Shown here piece by piece: positions 19,487-26,105 of a DNA stretch of 64,000 bases. The position numbers and the translations under genes were made by a program. Every line of letters starts with the position of its first letter. Within the stretch, counting starts at the first letter, position 1. The notes below the pieces were generated by a model. The model saw only the letters and a program-made list of their open reading frames with translations, had not been told where the DNA came from and ran no database searches. The DNA comes from Actinomycetota bacterium (GTDB lineage Bacteria; Actinomycetota; Thermoleophilia; Solirubrobacterales; Solirubrobacteraceae), in NCBI GenBank assembly GCA_018268595.1, contig JAFDWH010000021.1, forward strand, positions 1-64,000, in the 5' to 3' direction.

Positions 19487-19831
19487 ATGGCACGAGCGGC
19501 GACGACGGCGGACGTCTTCAACGCCGTCGCGGAGCCGCGGCGGCGCGCGATCGTGGACGCGCTCGCCGGCGGCGAGCGGCCGGTGACGGCGCTGGCGCAG
19601 GAGCTGGCGCTCGCGCAGCCGCAGGTCTCCAAGCACCTGCGCGTGCTGCGCGAGGTCGGCCTCGTCGCCGTGCGCGAGGCCGGCCGCCGGCGGCTCTACC
19701 GGCTCGACGCGCGCGCGCTCAAGCCGATCCACGACTGGGTGGCCGGCTACGAGCGCCTGTGGAGCGAGCGCTTCGAGCAGCTCGACGCCGTGCTGGACGA
19801 GCTCAAGAGCGAAGGAGGCGATGCGAGATGA
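19487..19831 (+). CDS. ArsR-family winged-helix repressor (SRPBCC-linked type)
   Basis: 114 residues from ATG 19487 (an in-frame ATG at 19478 would add three). Winged-helix fold: VFNAVAEPRRRAIVDALA, recognition helix LAQPQVSKHLRVLREVGLV, wing VREAGRRRLYRLD. No cysteine pair for metal sensing is visible. This subgroup is typically paired with an AHSA1/SRPBCC gene, as here (4-nt overlap), and autoregulates. Probably leaderless. Confidence 0.85.
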   Translation: MARAATTADVFNAVAEPRRRAIVDALAGGERPVTALAQELALAQPQVSKHLRVLREVGLVAVREAGRRRLYRLDARALKPIHDWVAGYERLWSERFEQLDAVLDELKSEGGDAR

Positions 19832-20310
19832 CGAGCAGCGGAACGGCGACGGTGACGTTGCCGACCGACGAGCAGATCATGGTCGTGCGGGAGTTCGACG
19901 CGCCGCGGGAGCTGGTCTTCCGCGCGTGGACCGAGCCGGACCTCGTGCGCCGCTGGTGGCACGCGAACCGCGGCGAGATCCGCTCGATCGAGATCGACCT
20001 GCGCGTCGGCGGGCGCTGGCGCTACGTGATGGTCACGCCCGAGGGCCAGGAGGTCGCCTTCCACGGGATCTACCGCGAGGTCGTGCCGGGCGAGCGGCTC
20101 GTCGCGACCGAGGTCTACGAGGGCATGCCCGACGCGGAGGCCGTCACGACCGTGACGTTCACCGAGGACGACGGCCGCACGACCGTGACGCTGCTCGTCC
20201 AGCACGCGCGCAAGGAGCACCGCGACGCGCACGTCGCCTCCGGGATGGAGGACGGCCTGCAGGACGCGCTCGACCTGCTCGAGCAGGTCGCGCAGTCGCT
20301 CGACCGCTGA
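19828..20310 (+). CDS. AHSA1/SRPBCC domain protein
   Basis: 160 residues with the START-like hydrophobic-cavity fold: VREFDAPRELVFRAWTEPDLVRRWW at the start, GGRWRYVM in the middle and a long C-terminal helix. The family binds hydrophobic ligands; the specific ligand is unknown. Translationally coupled to the ArsR gene upstream, so expression likely rises when the repressor leaves its operator. Converges on ilvD with 13 nt between stops. Confidence 0.85.
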   Translation: MTSSGTATVTLPTDEQIMVVREFDAPRELVFRAWTEPDLVRRWWHANRGEIRSIEIDLRVGGRWRYVMVTPEGQEVAFHGIYREVVPGERLVATEVYEGMPDAEAVTTVTFTEDDGRTTVTLLVQHARKEHRDAHVASGMEDGLQDALDLLEQVAQSLDR

Positions 20311-20323
20311 CGCGCGCGCCCGG

Positions 20324-22219
20324 CTACGCGACCGGCGCGTCCGCGCCGGTCCGCGCCGCCACCGCGACTGCCCGCTCGACCCGCTCGACGTCGCGCACGG
20401 CGCCCGTGTCGGCCGAGGTCGCCATCGCCGCGTACGCGCGCAGCGCGGGGGAGACCGCACGCTCGCGCGCGACCGGCGCGTAGCCGCCCGCCTCCTCGAG
20501 TGCGCGGCGGCGCGCGGCCAGCTCCGCGTCGGCGACCTCGAGCGAGATTGTGCGCGCCGGGATGTCGATCGCGATCGTGTCGCCGTTCTCGACCAGCGCG
20601 ATCGCGCCGCCCGACGCGGCCTCGGGCGAGACGTGCCCGATCGACAGGCCGGAGGTGCCGCCGGAGAAGCGCCCGTCGGTGATCAGCGCGCAGTCTCTCC
20701 CGAGCCCGCGGCCCTTCAGGTAGGAGGTCGGGTAGAGCATCTCCTGCATGCCCGGGCCGCCGCGCGGGCCCTCGTAGCGGATCACGACCACGTCGCCGGG
20801 TCTGACCCCGTCGGCGAGGATCAGCTCGACCGCGTCCTCCTGCGACTCGACCACGACCGCCGGGCCGCTGAAGCGCAGGATCGACTCGTCCACGCCGGCC
20901 GTCTTCACGACGCAGCCGCGCTCGGCGAGGTTGCCGTAGAGGATCGCGAGGCCGCCCTCGACCGAGTAGGCGTGGTCGAGGTCGCGGATGCAGCCGTCGG
21001 CCGCGTCGAGGTCGAGCGACTCCCACCGCTCCGACTGCGAGAACGCGCTCGCGGACCGCCTGCAGCCGGGCGCCGCGTGGAACAGCTCCACCGCGCGCTC
21101 GCTGGGCTTCCCCCCGCGCACGTCCCACTCGCCGAGCCAGGCGTCGATGTCGCGCGCGTGCACGCTCGTGACGTCCTCGTTGAGCAACCCGCCGCGGCGC
21201 AGCTCGCCGAGGATCGCGGGGATGCCGCCGGCGCGGTGCACGTCCTCCATCAGGTACGTGCCGTTCGGCGCGACCTTGCAGATGCACGGCACGCGGCGCG
21301 AGAGCGCGTCGATGTCGGCCATCGTGAAGTCGACCTCGGCCTCCTGCGCGGCGGCGAGCAGGTGCAGGATCGTGTTGGTCGAGCCGCCCATCGCGATGTC
21401 GAGCGTCATCGCGTTCTCGAACGCCTCGCGCGTGGCGACCGAGCGCGGCAGCACCGACGCGTCGTCGTCCTCGTACCAGCGCTTCGCGATCTCCACCACC
21501 GCCCGGCCGGCGTCCTCGTACAGCTGCCGGCGCGCGGTGTGCGTCGCGAGCGTCGAGCCGTTGCCGGGCAGCGAGAGCCCGAGCGCCTCGGTCAGGCAGT
21601 TCATCGAGTTGGCGGTGAACATGCCGGAGCAGGAGCCGCACGTCGGGCAGGCGGCCTCCTCGATCAGGTCCATGTCGGCGTCGCTGACGCTGGGGGAGAC
21701 GGCCTCCGCCATCGCGGTGATGAGGTTCAGGCCCTTGCGGACGGTGCCGTCCACGAGCGTCGCGACGCCGCCCTCCATCGGGCCGCCGGAGACGAACACG
21801 GTCGGGATGTTCAGCCGCAGCGCGGCGTTCAGCATCCCGGGCGTGATCTTGTCGCAGTTCGAGATGCAGATCAGCGCGTCGGCGCAGTGCGCCTGCACCA
21901 TGTACTCGACGCTGTCGGCGATCAGGTCGCGCGAGGGGAGCGAGTAGAGCATCCCGCCGTGGCCCATCGCGATCCCGTCGTCGACCGCGATCGTGTTGAA
22001 CTCGCGCGGCACGCCACCGGCCGCGTGGACCGCCTCGGCGACGACCTCGCCGACCGGCTTGAGGTGCGTGTGGCCGGGGACGAACTGCGTGTAGGAGTTC
22101 GCGACCGCGACGATCGGCTTGCCGAAGTCCTCGCGGGCGACGCCGGCGGCGCGCAGCAGCGCGCGTGCGCCGGCCATGTTGCGGCCGTGGGTGACGGTGC
22201 GGGAGCGGAGAGCGGGCAT
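20324..22219 (-). CDS. ilvD: dihydroxy-acid dehydratase IlvD
   Basis: 631 residues. Iron-sulfur dehydratase of valine, leucine and isoleucine synthesis. Cluster-ligand cysteines sit in [11 protein letters not shown] and [33 protein letters not shown] is the conserved C-terminal motif. Slightly longer than typical (560-615). On this strand TAGTGT (22232-22227) ends 7 nt before the ATG, so it is probably leaderless. It shares its promoter region with the divergent TetR gene. Confidence 0.95.
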
Positions 22220-22225
22220 GGCGTC

Positions 22226-22232
22226 TACACTA
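22226..22232. promoter_or_regulatory. overlapping divergent -10 elements, ilvD / TetR gene
   Basis: TACACT (22226-22231, plus) ends 6 nt before the TetR ATG. TAGTGT (22232-22227, minus) ends 7 nt before the ilvD ATG. The two hexamers share five base pairs within an 18-bp space between divergent start codons. RNA polymerase could therefore initiate only one way at a time. Confidence 0.65.
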
Positions 22233-22237
22233 GCGGA

Positions 22238-22798
22238 ATGGCCATTCCGGTGCCACTGCCCTGGGCCGCGCTGACCGCGGCGGAGAAGCGCTCGCGCGCG
22301 CTCGCGGTCGCCGACGAGCTGTTCGCGCGCGAGGGCACCGCCGTCTCGATGCCGGTGCTGGCCGAGGCGATCGGCGCCGGCGTCGGCAGCATCTACCGCC
22401 AGGTCGGCACGAAGGACGAGCTGATCGCGGCGCTCGTGATCGCGCGCGCGCAGGTGCTGCGCGAGCGCTTCCACGCCGCGCTCGACGCCGACGACGCGTG
22501 GGCGGCGCTGACGCGCGCGACGCACGCGACGGTCGACGACTGCATCGCCGACGCGCTCTCGCAGACCGCGTGGGACGAGGCGGCGTTCGCGAGCGAGGCC
22601 GTGCGCGCCGCGCGCGCCGGCGCGACCGACGCGCTCGCCGCCCTGGTCGAGCGCGCCCGCGACGCCGGCGCGCTGCGCGACGACGCGACGCACGAGGACC
22701 TCCGCCTCGTCTTCTGCGCGCTGCGCGAGCTGGCCGGCATCGGGCCCGAGTCCGCGCACCGGCTCGCCGAGCTGGTGCTGCGCGGCATGCGCGGCTGA
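22238..22798 (+). CDS. TetR-family transcriptional regulator
   Basis: 186 residues. N-terminal TetR helix-turn-helix (residues about 15-60; [28 protein letters not shown]), then an Ala-rich helical ligand-binding domain without a recognisable ligand type. It is divergent from ilvD with only 18 bp between start codons, so binding to its own promoter would also control ilvD. No clear palindrome larger than the -10 overlap is seen. Confidence 0.88.
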
Positions 22799-22823: not shown

Positions 22824-23222
22824 TCAGCCGGTCGCGTCCAGCTCGGCGGCGAGCGCGGCGACGCGCCGGGCGATCTCGTCACGGGTCGCGCGCACGTCGG
22901 CGAGCGGGCGACCTTTCGGATCGGGGAGCTGCCAGTCGACGTAGCGCTTGCCGGGCACGTACGGGCAGGCGTCGCCGCAGCCCATCGTGACGACCACGTC
23001 GGCCTGCTCGGCCAGCGCGCGCGTGAGGCGCTGTGGCCGGCGGTCGGAGAGGTCGATCCCCAGCTCGCGCATGACCTCCACGACCTCTGCGTGGACGCGC
23101 TCGGCCGGCGTCGTGCCGGCGCTGAGCGCTCGGTGGCGGCCGCCGGCGGCCTGCTCGAACAGGGCGGCGCTCATCTGCGAGCGGCCGGCGTTGTGGAGAC
23201 AGACGAACAGCGCGGTCGCCAT
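22824..23222 (-). CDS. arsC: arsenate reductase, low-MW phosphatase type
   Basis: 132 residues. The phosphatase loop is close to the N-terminus: [15 protein letters not shown] matches C-x5-[14 protein letters not shown] and the [24 protein letters not shown] segment with further cysteines are typical of thioredoxin/mycothiol-linked arsenate reductases. It reduces arsenate to arsenite. Shares one base with the aquaporin stop (TGATG) as the last gene of arsR-aqp-arsC. Confidence 0.9.
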
Positions 23223-23926
23223 CAGCGCGTCTGCGCCACATTGGCCGGGCGCGGATGCTCGCCGCGCACGAGCTGGTACGCGAGCGCGCCGAGCGCGGCG
23301 CCGACGACGGGGCCGACGACGTAGATCCAGAAGTCGTGCCACGTGCCTGAGGCGAGCGCCGGCCCGAACGAGCGCGCCGGGTTCATCGACGCGCCGGTGA
23401 TCGGGCCGCCGAACAGCGCGTCGAGCCCGACCGTCCCGCCGATCGCGAGCGCAGCGGCGGCGCCGACCGCGCGCGTGTCGGTCGCGACCGCGACGATCAC
23501 GAACATCAGGAACGCCGACAGCACGATCTCGTAGAGCAGCGCCGTGCCCGTGCCGACGCTCGGGAGCGTCGCGCCCAAGTGCGCCGGCTTTGCGCTCCAG
23601 GCGGCGAGCAGCACGAACGCGGCGGCGGTCGCGCCGGCGAGCTGCGCGGCGACGTATGCGAGCGCGTCGCGCAGCGGGAAGTGCCGCGTCAGCGTGAACG
23701 CGAGGGTGACGGCAGGATTGATGTGCGCGCCCGACAGGTGCCCGGTCGCATAGATCATCGCCATGATCACCAGGCCAAAGGTCGCGCTGACGCCGACGCC
23801 GCCGAGCGCTCCGGCGTGGACCGTGTTCGCGACGATCGCACCGCAGCCGGCGAACACCAGCGCGAACGCCGCCAGCCCTTCGGCGAGCGCCCGGCGCGCG
23901 AGCCCGGGACGCTCCCTCACAGCCAT
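23222..23926 (-). CDS. MIP-family aquaporin, probable arsenite channel (AqpS-like)
   Basis: 234 residues with six membrane helices and the two half-helix motifs GAHINPAVT and GASMNPARS (both NPA intact). ATG 23926 gives MAVRERPGLARRALAEGL and overlaps the end of the ArsR gene by 10 nt. Lying between an ArsR sensor and arsenate reductase, it occupies the place of an arsenite pump. Such arrangements let arsenite formed by ArsC flow out by gradient, as known for rhizobial AqpS. Role inferred from context. Confidence 0.85.
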   Translation of the reverse strand: MAVRERPGLARRALAEGLAAFALVFAGCGAIVANTVHAGALGGVGVSATFGLVIMAMIYATGHLSGAHINPAVTLAFTLTRHFPLRDALAYVAAQLAGATAAAFVLLAAWSAKPAHLGATLPSVGTGTALLYEIVLSAFLMFVIVAVATDTRAVGAAAALAIGGTVGLDALFGGPITGASMNPARSFGPALASGTWHDFWIYVVGPVVGAALGALAYQLVRGEHPRPANVAQTR

Positions 23927-24267
23927 CTGCGCAGCTCCTCCAACGCGTCGGGCAGGACGTAGTAGTAGGCCCACAGGCCGCGCCGCTCGACGCCGAGGAT
24001 GCCGGCCTCGCGCAGCTTGCGCAGGTGGTGCGAGAGCGTCGGCTGAGAGATGTCGAACAGCGGCTCCAGCTCGCACACGCAGACCTCGCCCGCATGCCCG
24101 CGCAACACGTCCACGAGCTGCACCCGGACCGGATCGGCGAGCGCCTTCGCCACCGCCGCGATCCGCTCGGCCCCGGCCGCATCGACCTCGGGCAGGACGA
24201 CCGGCTCGCAGCAGCGCTCGCCCGCACCGCGCTTCGCCTTCGGCGCGATCGTTATATCGACACTCAT
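23917..24267 (-). CDS. arsR: ArsR arsenite-responsive repressor
   Basis: 116 residues, winged helix. The metal-binding motif VCVCELEPLF in the DNA-binding helix region matches the classical ELCVCDL As(III) site, and an additional Cys-Cys pair sits at residues 19-20. LSHHLRKLREAG is the recognition helix. On the minus strand TAGCGT (24280-24275) ends 7 nt before the ATG; leaderless promoter and autorepression are likely. Heads the arsenic operon. Confidence 0.92.
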   Translation of the reverse strand: MSVDITIAPKAKRGAGERCCEPVVLPEVDAAGAERIAAVAKALADPVRVQLVDVLRGHAGEVCVCELEPLFDISQPTLSHHLRKLREAGILGVERRGLWAYYYVLPDALEELRRWL

Positions 24268-24493: not shown

Positions 24494-24931
24494 TCAGGGG
24501 CTGTCGCGCGTCGCGTCGGCCGGAAGCAGCGTGAAGCTGCCGCCGCCGAGCGGCGTCACAGCGCGAAAATGGCGCTCGTCGAAGCTGAGGATCCGCTTCG
24601 TCTCATACCGATGGGCGAGCACGACGAGCGCACAGTCGACGAGCCCGAGGCTCAGATCGGCGTAGCGCGATTCGAGGTCGGCGACGGTCGCGTAGTCGTC
24701 CCGTTCGAGTGCCGCGACGGTGAAGCGGCCGGCGGCAAGGTCGGAGAGGAACGCGCGTCGAGCGGAGTCGCCGAGTCGTTGTCCGAGCAGGTAGTCGATT
24801 TCGGCGGTTGTCGGCGCGGGGATGACGAGCGATCCCGGCTCGTCCTGGATCGCCGCGAGGATCGCGGCGCGGCGCGGCTCGCCGGCGTCGGCGAGCGCGA
24901 CGAGTGGGGCGGTGTCGATGAGCAGCGTCAA
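24494..24931 (-). CDS. PIN-domain ribonuclease toxin (VapC family)
   Basis: 145 residues. PIN acidic residues are visible: Asp in LLIDTAPLVALAD, Glu in TAEIDYLL, Asp in LVDCALVVLA and Asp in LSFDERHF. VapC toxins are Mg-dependent RNases. The start is TTG, overlapping the antitoxin stop (TTGA), so toxin translation depends on antitoxin translation and is weak. Second gene of the module. Confidence 0.88.
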   Translation of the reverse strand: MTLLIDTAPLVALADAGEPRRAAILAAIQDEPGSLVIPAPTTAEIDYLLGQRLGDSARRAFLSDLAAGRFTVAALERDDYATVADLESRYADLSLGLVDCALVVLAHRYETKRILSFDERHFRAVTPLGGGSFTLLPADATRDSP

Positions 24932-25164
24932 GCGCCGAAGCCGTCGAGCAGCTCGTGCTCGGGGATCTCCGAGATCGGGCGTGCGTCGCTGTCGATGCGA
25001 CGGAAGCCGGCGGCGAGCGCGAAGCTGCGGTCACGGGAAGAGGGCAGCCGATAGGCGGCAATCGCCTCCCGCAGGATCTCGGCCTGCGGTCGACCGGCCT
25101 CGCGCGCCAGCGCGGCAAGGCGCTCGGCCTGCCGGTCATCGAGGTAAACACTCGTCTTGCGCAC
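24928..25164 (-). CDS. ribbon-helix-helix antitoxin (CopG type)
   Basis: 78 residues: N-terminal ribbon-helix-helix (VRKTSVYLDDRQAERLAALAREA) and an acidic toxin-binding C-terminus (ISEIPEHELLDGF). GTG 25164 is chosen over an upstream ATG (25182) because TACAAT (25176-25171, minus) ends 6 nt before the GTG. Pairs with the PIN toxin. Confidence 0.85.
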   Translation of the reverse strand: MRKTSVYLDDRQAERLAALAREAGRPQAEILREAIAAYRLPSSRDRSFALAAGFRRIDSDARPISEIPEHELLDGFGA

Positions 25165-25238
25165 ACCCTCATTGTAGGGCATGACGTAGGGCGCCACCGG
25201 AACCTCGGCGCGAGAACCGGCGTGATGCGGATGGCTGG

Positions 25239-26105
25239 CTACGCCCGCGGCCGCGTCTCGCGCGTGAGCCGCTCGGCCTCGCTCACGGGGTCGCGGGAGA
25301 GGTGCTGTGCGCCGAGCCGCGCGGCGAGCGCGGGCGTGGCTCCGGCCCCCGCGAGCGCGAGCGGCACGTCGTCGGCGACGCTCCCGAGCTCGGCAGAGCA
25401 GGCGGCGAGGCGCTCCGGCGCTGTCGCGCTGAGGACGAACGCGTCGGCGGGCAGCTCGCGGGCGATTCCGGCCGCGGTGGCGATCGGCGTGTCGGCGCCG
25501 AGATAGGTGATCCGCCAGCCGCGCGCGCGCAGCGCGAGGCCGAAGGCGATCAGCGGCAGGTCGTGCAGCTCTCCCGGCACGCACGCCAGCACCGCACGCG
25601 GGCCGGCGCCGCCATCCCACCCTCGTGCGAGGCCGAGCAGTCGCCCGCGCAGCACGTTGGAAGCGAAGTGCTCCTGTGCGATGGACGCCTCGCCGCGCTC
25701 CCAGCGGGAACCCAGCTCGGCGAGGTAGGGGAGGATCAGCTCGGTCAGGACGGCATCGACCGTCAGGCTTGCCAGTGCCCGGTCGACGACGGCGTGCGCC
25801 ATCGCGTCGTCGAAGCGATCGAGCGCCTCGCGCAGGTCTGCCAGTTGCGCCGAGCCGTTCTGCTTGGGCACCGACGGGGCCGGGCCGGCGAGCGCGAGGG
25901 CGGCGGCCTCGGCCGCGGACAGGCCCGAGGCCAGGTGGGACTGCATCGCGCGCAAGCGCAGCAGGTCGGCCTCGGAGTACAGCCGGTAGCCGCCGTTCGA
26001 GCGGCTCGGCTCGAGCAGCGCGTAGCGCCGCTCCCAGGCACGCAGCAGCTCTGGTGCGATCCCCGTGCGCCGACTCAGCTCGCCGATCCGCATGTAGCCC
26101 GCCAT
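25239..26105 (-). CDS. MerR-family B12-binding regulator (CarH/LitR-like photoreceptor)
   Basis: 288 residues: MerR helix-turn-helix (5-75; RIGELSRRTGIAPELLRAWE), a helical cobalamin-capping domain (about 95-160) and a Rossmann B12 domain (170-288). W135-x9-E145-H146 and the lower-ligand ExH (Glu179, His181) fit the CarH motif. Recalled Thermus CarH residues (Trp131, Glu141, His142, His177) map with a constant offset of 4. The residue equivalent to its His132 is Glu136 here. TACACT (26118-26113) ends 7 nt before the ATG. Probably a light- and B12-controlled repressor; divergent from the DUF378-fasciclin operon. Confidence 0.82.
   Translation of the reverse strand: MAGYMRIGELSRRTGIAPELLRAWERRYALLEPSRSNGGYRLYSEADLLRLRAMQSHLASGLSAAEAAALALAGPAPSVPKQNGSAQLADLREALDRFDDAMAHAVVDRALASLTVDAVLTELILPYLAELGSRWERGEASIAQEHFASNVLRGRLLGLARGWDGGAGPRAVLACVPGELHDLPLIAFGLALRARGWRITYLGADTPIATAAGIARELPADAFVLSATAPERLAACSAELGSVADDVPLALAGAGATPALAARLGAQHLSRDPVSEAERLTRETRPRA

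What the first reader, a model, noticed from the sequence alone, without database searches (positions are those of the whole stretch)
22220..22237. Bidirectional leaderless promoter in 18 bp between ilvD and a TetR gene
TACACT (plus) and TAGTGT (minus) overlap by five base pairs, and each lies 6-7 nt from its own start codon. Initiation in the two directions must be mutually exclusive, and a TetR dimer here would control both.
Basis: partly seen in the sequence, partly recalled or inferred. Interest (0 to 1): 0.55.

Follow-up and report, generated by a model that had tools for sequence, protein, structure and literature searches.

The report
Shared leaderless promoter with TetR operator
In a soil actinobacterium an 18-base gap between an amino-acid synthesis gene and a repressor gene appears to be one promoter read in both directions, and the repressor's likely binding site lies across its own start codon, a compact self-controlling switch kept in many relatives but not yet tested at the bench.

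Summary
The 18 bp at 22220-22237 lie between ilvD (ATG complement 22217-22219) and a TetR gene (ATG 22238-22240), and TACACTA (22226-22232) reads TANNNT on both strands, 6-7 nt from each ATG. Comparison supports a promoter shared by both genes: in 14 of 14 compact ilvD-tetR pairs the motif is TANNNTA with seven different middles and the gap is 17-18 bp; published bidirectional start sites are usually 18 bp apart. Leaderlessness is supported: 0 of 14 compact ilvD genes, but 7 of 7 with longer gaps, have a Shine-Dalgarno sequence. Of 30 TetR homologues found by protein search alone, 29 start inside CGGA-ATG-N4-TTCCG; rare codons and retained non-coding copies show selection on DNA. It occurs once in this genome. 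Most likely TetR represses itself and ilvD from this site. Nothing was measured: start sites, binding, repression and ligand are inferred. It works like E. coli PacrA/acrR, but both start codons sit at the predicted start sites and the operator lies inside the repressor's reading frame.

The parts
22220..22237 (.). 18-bp intergenic region between the ilvD and tetR start codons
   Evidence: 17-18 bp in 14 of 21 ilvD-tetR pairs
22226..22232 (.). symmetric -10 element TACACTA (TANNNTA), shared by both directions
   Evidence: TANNNTA in 14/14 compact pairs, seven different middles
22226..22231 (+). tetR -10 (TACACT), 6 nt before ATG
   Evidence: TANNNT 6 nt from ATG in 25 of 30 TetR homologues chosen by protein similarity only, 6-7 nt in 28 of 30
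22227..22232 (-). ilvD -10 (TAGTGT), 7 nt before ATG
   Evidence: TANNNT at 6-7 nt in 14/14 compact ilvD and in 23/27 ilvD orthologues without TetR
22238..22238 (+). predicted tetR transcription start = A of ATG (inferred, leaderless)
   Evidence: inference from -10 spacing; not measured
22219..22219 (-). predicted ilvD transcription start = A of ATG (inferred, leaderless)
   Evidence: inference from -10 spacing and absence of SD
22234..22249 (.). predicted TetR operator: perfect 16-bp palindrome CGGAATGGCCATTCCG spanning the tetR start codon (-4 to +12 of tetR; spacer of the ilvD promoter)
   Evidence: arms 22234-22241/22242-22249, 100%; the only exact site in the genome; CGGA-ATG-N4-TTCCG in 29 of 30 homologues
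22251..22256 (-). weak ilvD -35-like hexamer GTGGCA, spacer 18 (4 of 6 to TTGACA), tentative
   Evidence: not called by the stricter scan
22238..22798 (+). tetR: TetR_N + TetR_C_43 (SbtR-like) regulator, 186 aa
20324..22219 (-). ilvD: dihydroxy-acid dehydratase (NF009103/TIGR00110), 631 codons to the stop of the ORF

Best explanation
One symmetric -10 element (TACACTA) serves tetR to the right and ilvD to the left, and both mRNAs start at or next to the A of their ATG (leaderless). The TetR protein binds the palindrome CGGAATGGCCATTCCG at 22234-22249. Bound there it covers -4 to +12 of its own gene and the spacer just behind ilvD's -10, so one dimer is placed to stop RNA polymerase in both orientations: autorepression plus repression of ilvD, relieved by an unknown ligand. 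Shown by sequence: geometry, palindrome, conservation, DNA-level selection, a single site in this genome. Inferred: start sites, binding, repression of both genes, ligand. The TetR lineage most likely came from a regulator with the same promoter-operator module beside MFS exporter genes and was placed beside an already leaderless ilvD.
For: (1) Shared -10: 14/14 compact pairs have TANNNTA with seven different middles. The base that completes symmetry is present in 14/14 compact ilvD promoters but 1/23 leaderless ilvD promoters without TetR (Fisher 2.5e-9, relatedness not corrected). (2) Spacing: gaps of 17-18 bp put the two predicted starts 18-19 bp apart; PMC10268837 (passages) gives 18 bp as the usual spacing of bidirectional starts and 7-25 bp as the definition. 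(3) Leaderless: 0/14 compact ilvD have an SD, 7/7 with longer gaps do (Fisher 8.6e-6); 23/27 ilvD without TetR also have TANNNT 6-7 nt before ATG; genome-wide enrichment 337 v 116. (4) Operator: 29/30 homologues picked by protein search only start at CGGA-ATG-N4-TTCCG, strict palindrome 25/30. (5) DNA selection: codon 3 is ATT in 35/35 Ile and GTT in 12/12 Val cases, against 4/251 and 13/649 in the rest of the same genes (48 rows, four of them repeats of other rows' proteins). (6) Non-coding copies: in L085/L043 (Patulibacter HTM.34) tetR has been moved away by an inserted gene, yet TACGGTA and the operator remain beside ilvD, where that ATG opens only a 25-codon stub; second copies lie upstream in several MFS-linked loci. 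(7) Operator pattern over 146 genomes: sites in 46 genomes, 3 places in the control (control total is my hand count). (8) The TetR stretch around the predicted recognition helix (GVGSIYRQ) is nearly constant (helix assignment recalled). (9) Precedent: PacrA/acrR, a bidirectional promoter repressed both ways by the TetR-family AcrR (PMC12825309 passages).
Against: No start-site, binding or expression data exist here. tetR has no convincing -35 in most of the 14 compact pairs (best match 2-3 of 6 in 13, 4 of 6 in one), so promoter strength is unknown. TANNNTA is also present in 22 of 27 TetR loci without ilvD, so the symmetric base is a trait of the tetR promoter and not specific to the ilvD pairing. 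2 of 50 examined homologues lack the motif at their start (L058, L195). The rows are related, so the Fisher values overstate independence. In 7 of 21 ilvD-tetR pairs the two genes lie further apart, so close sharing is not essential to the pair.
Confidence: 0.78

Rival explanations
1. TetR binds the operator and represses only its own gene; ilvD uses the same DNA but is not usefully regulated, for instance because RNA polymerase displaces TetR or ilvD is strong and constitutive. The pairing is then mainly an accident of gene order.
For: The operator covers the tetR start (-4 to +12) and is kept whatever the neighbour. ilvD orthologues without TetR keep the same kind of leaderless promoter. Seven pairs lie further apart.
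Against: In L085/L043 an operator copy stays beside ilvD although tetR lies about 930 bp away and has its own copy. L036 and L037 keep an extra operator-like palindrome in the long ilvD leader (the L036 copy is an exact pattern match). The operator fills the spacer of the ilvD promoter.
Confidence: 0.14
2. Only ilvD uses a leaderless promoter here. tetR starts elsewhere (inside ilvD, or at an internal GTG) and the symmetry is chance.
For: Leaderless ilvD promoters exist without TetR (23/27). The bare divergent pattern is only about twofold over control in the family. No convincing -35 is seen for tetR.
Against: TANNNT 6 nt before the tetR ATG is kept in 25/30 homologues chosen without regard to it, 6-7 nt in 28/30, also where ilvD is absent. 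Compact pairs have TANNNTA 14/14 against 1/23 for ilvD alone.
Confidence: 0.06
3. The palindrome is a by-product of a conserved TetR N-terminus (M-x-I/V-P), not an operator.
For: The palindrome encodes M-A-I-P here and M-x-I/V-P in the aligned relatives.
Against: Codon 3 uses rare ATT/GTT in 47 of 48 rows; the next residues vary freely in length and sequence; the upstream CGGA is non-coding yet conserved; non-coding copies occur.
Confidence: 0.02

Closest known systems
E. coli PacrA/acrR bidirectional promoter (Warman et al., Nucleic Acids Res 2026, PMC12825309; passages read)
   Same: Shared symmetric -10 drives a TetR-family repressor gene one way and its target the other; the repressor lowers both RNAs.
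   Different: Here the gap is 18 bp, both mRNAs are predicted to be leaderless, the predicted operator spans the repressor's start codon, and the target is a biosynthetic gene and not an efflux pump.
Bidirectional promoters in general (Warman et al. 2021, PMC7612053, not held and not read; spacing and definition from PMC10268837, passages)
   Same: Symmetry of the -10; start sites usually 18 bp apart, defined as 7-25 bp apart; predicted spacing here 19 bp.
   Different: Start sites here are predicted, not mapped; both would fall on start codons.
Leaderless actinobacterial promoters (M. smegmatis, PMC6448022, passages: 24% leaderless; ANNNT in 79% of promoters, 63% of those TANNNT)
   Same: TANNNT just upstream of the start codon, no SD.
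   Different: The passages describe promoters gene by gene; here two divergent genes share one.
MFS-linked TetR homologues of the same family in Solirubrobacterales (L051, L055, L060-L062, L064, L185, L186, L188, L193, L196, L197 and others)
   Same: Mostly the same TANNNTA, same operator on the start codon, same HTH region.
   Different: Their divergent neighbour looks like an MFS transporter (my reading of the translations, not profile-searched), often with a second operator about 23 bp upstream of the tetR ATG.

Membership tests
Bidirectional promoter | Divergent start sites 7-25 bp apart on opposite strands | not testable with these tools
   Predicted 19 bp from -10 spacing; definition from PMC10268837
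Bidirectional promoter | -10 elements that overlap on opposite strands through symmetry | tested here: met
   TACACTA; TANNNTA 14/14 in compact pairs
Leaderless gene | -10 about 6-7 nt before the start codon and no SD | tested here: met
   ilvD by script (0/14 compact ilvD with SD), tetR by reading the sequence
Leaderless gene | mRNA 5' end at the start codon | not testable with these tools
   No transcript data
TetR family regulator | TetR_N helix-turn-helix domain above the gathering score | tested here: met
   PF00440 32.0 bits, cut-off 24; PF21597 36.4 bits, cut-off 27
TetR family regulator | Palindromic operator near its own promoter | tested here: met
   (sequence only)
TetR family regulator | DNA binding and ligand-released repression | not testable with these tools
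   No assay
Dihydroxy-acid dehydratase IlvD | Equivalog score above the curated cut-off | tested here: met
   NF009103 1023.8 v 710; TIGR00110 742 v 618.15

The most novel reading that the evidence does not exclude
A minimal self-controlling divergon. Within 33 bp (22217-22249) lie both start codons, both predicted leaderless start sites, one shared -10 and the only operator of the genome. The repressor's first four amino acids (M-x-I/V-P) are dictated by its operator, and one TetR dimer shuts both directions. The module arose beside MFS exporter genes and later took over an already leaderless ilvD.
Probability: 0.55. Interest if true: 0.55.

Novelty: new variant of a known kind. Interest (0 to 1): 0.45.

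Why it matters
It would show that a bidirectional promoter can be the whole gap between two protein genes, with translation starting at both transcription starts, which makes RNA polymerase exclusion and leaderless translation testable in one small fragment. It also gives a predicted operator for a TetR clade in Solirubrobacterales, including its exporter-linked relatives, and suggests an unknown signal that controls one of this genome's two DHAD-like genes.

Tried and rejected
Divergent pattern with wrong spacing (31 genomes) missed the site itself and was replaced. A BLAST run of my own gave empty results because the database step failed and was repeated. A sigma-70 scan needing both hexamers found nothing at 22100-22400, as expected for weak -35s. 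A wider regulon was looked for and not found: with up to two mismatches the genome has three further places, all with two mismatches, against one in the control. 'Palindrome is protein conservation' was rejected by codon use and non-coding copies. Control of 16 more distant TetR genes (read): strict operator 0 of 16; looser start motif in 2 of 16 (L238 on the + strand of the stretch, L240 on the - strand). A genome-collection scan with the 16-letter start motif gave 104 stretches; 37 of 104 hold a TetR homologue, 18 of these also ilvD; the rest look like chance hits, many from unrelated phyla. One search used 50 loci: 30 from protein search and 20 found with a motif pattern, so biased; the unbiased counts are those on the 30. 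Hits among L145-L168 were seen only and not added to the counts. Tree: 43 of 48 proteins, four dropped as repeats and one as short; the ilvD-linked TetRs fall on one side of one branch (support 87/72), so a single capture is likely, not proven. Literature: seven answered searches (one search found no paper); none of the listings that I saw showed a leaderless bidirectional TetR promoter, but listings were cut and most subscription papers are missing.

Full report
What is there. The 18-bp gap GGCGTCTACACTAGCGGA at 22220-22237 lies between ilvD (minus strand, ATG 22217-22219) and a TetR gene (plus strand, ATG 22238-22240). TetR matches PF00440 and PF21597, SbtR-like C-terminus; IlvD passes the NF009103 and TIGR00110 cut-offs. 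The genome is a 3.57-Mb assembly. G005, of the same genus, has a contig of the same length (1,837,847) as the Conexibacter arvalis DSM 23288 record found, so the window most likely comes from a Conexibacter relative (inference).

Leaderless promoters are normal in this genome. TANNNTN{6,7}ATG occurs 337 times against 116 for the reversed pattern. Among 27 ilvD orthologues without a neighbouring TetR, 23 have TANNNT 6-7 nt before the ATG. Among 21 with TetR, the 14 compact ones have it and none has an SD, while the 7 with longer gaps have an SD and not this -10.

The -10 is shared. In 14 of 14 compact pairs it is TANNNTA, with middles CAC, GGC, CGC, ACC, GCC, AGG and AGA. Only the outer TA pairs are fixed, which is what reading on both strands needs. 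The completing base is present in 1 of 23 leaderless ilvD promoters without TetR. Gaps of 17-18 bp give predicted starts 18-19 bp apart; 18 bp is the usual spacing of bidirectional starts in PMC10268837 (passage). Against a reading specific to ilvD: the symmetric motif is present in 22 of 27 TetR loci without ilvD, whose divergent genes may use it with a leader.

The operator. CGGAATGGCCATTCCG (22234-22249) is a perfect palindrome that contains the tetR start codon. It occurs once in the genome. Of 30 homologues brought in by protein similarity only, 29 start at CGGA-ATG-N4-TTCCG and 25 fit the strict palindrome; the exception without the start motif is L058. Of 16 more distant TetR genes none has the strict palindrome. 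Codon 3 is ATT or GTT in 47 of 48 rows, although these codons make up 4 of 251 Ile and 13 of 649 Val codons in the rest of the same genes (four rows repeat another row's protein). In Patulibacter HTM.34 an inserted gene separates tetR from ilvD, yet TACGGTA plus the palindrome remain beside ilvD, where the ATG opens only a short stub. Several MFS-linked loci have a second, non-coding copy about 23 bp upstream of the tetR ATG.

How it likely works. Bound at 22234-22249, TetR would cover -4 to +12 of tetR and lie in the 18-bp spacer (22233-22250) between ilvD's -10 and a weak -35-like GTGGCA. One dimer could therefore block both directions, as AcrR does at PacrA/acrR (PMC12825309, passages). Polymerase bound one way excludes the other, but in that paper basal competition was negligible at the five promoters tested (abstract). 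Signal and sign of regulation are not known.

Origin. The ilvD-linked TetRs lie on one side of one branch (87/72). Their relatives are mostly divergent from genes whose translations look like MFS transporters, some from UspA-like genes (my reading). Because ilvD is leaderless without TetR too, a TetR module with its promoter-operator probably came to lie next to it once (inference).

Verdict.

Noticed in passing
22827-24267 (-): ArsR regulator, aquaporin-type MIP channel and LMWPc phosphatase/arsenate-reductase-like gene in a row: an arsenic-type operon with an aquaporin, convergent with tetR.
   Followed up: partly
19490-20310 (+): ArsR-type regulator followed by an AHSA1/SRPBCC gene.
   Followed up: partly
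25239-26105 (-): MerR regulator with B12-binding domains, possibly a light- or cobalamin-responsive regulator.
   Followed up: no
24494-25176 (-): RHH protein and PIN-domain protein, a VapBC-like toxin-antitoxin pair.
   Followed up: no
G000:C11:32071-33546: A second, about 40% identical IlvD-like gene in the same genome; many family genomes seem to have only this type.
   Followed up: no
L186 (G080:C152:20757-20779): An independent compact TANNNTA pair with the same operator but an MFS-like divergent gene 17 bp away.
   Followed up: partly
L155: TACACTAGCGGAATGATCGTTCCG on a contig without a detectable TetR homologue: a possible orphan operator.
   Followed up: no
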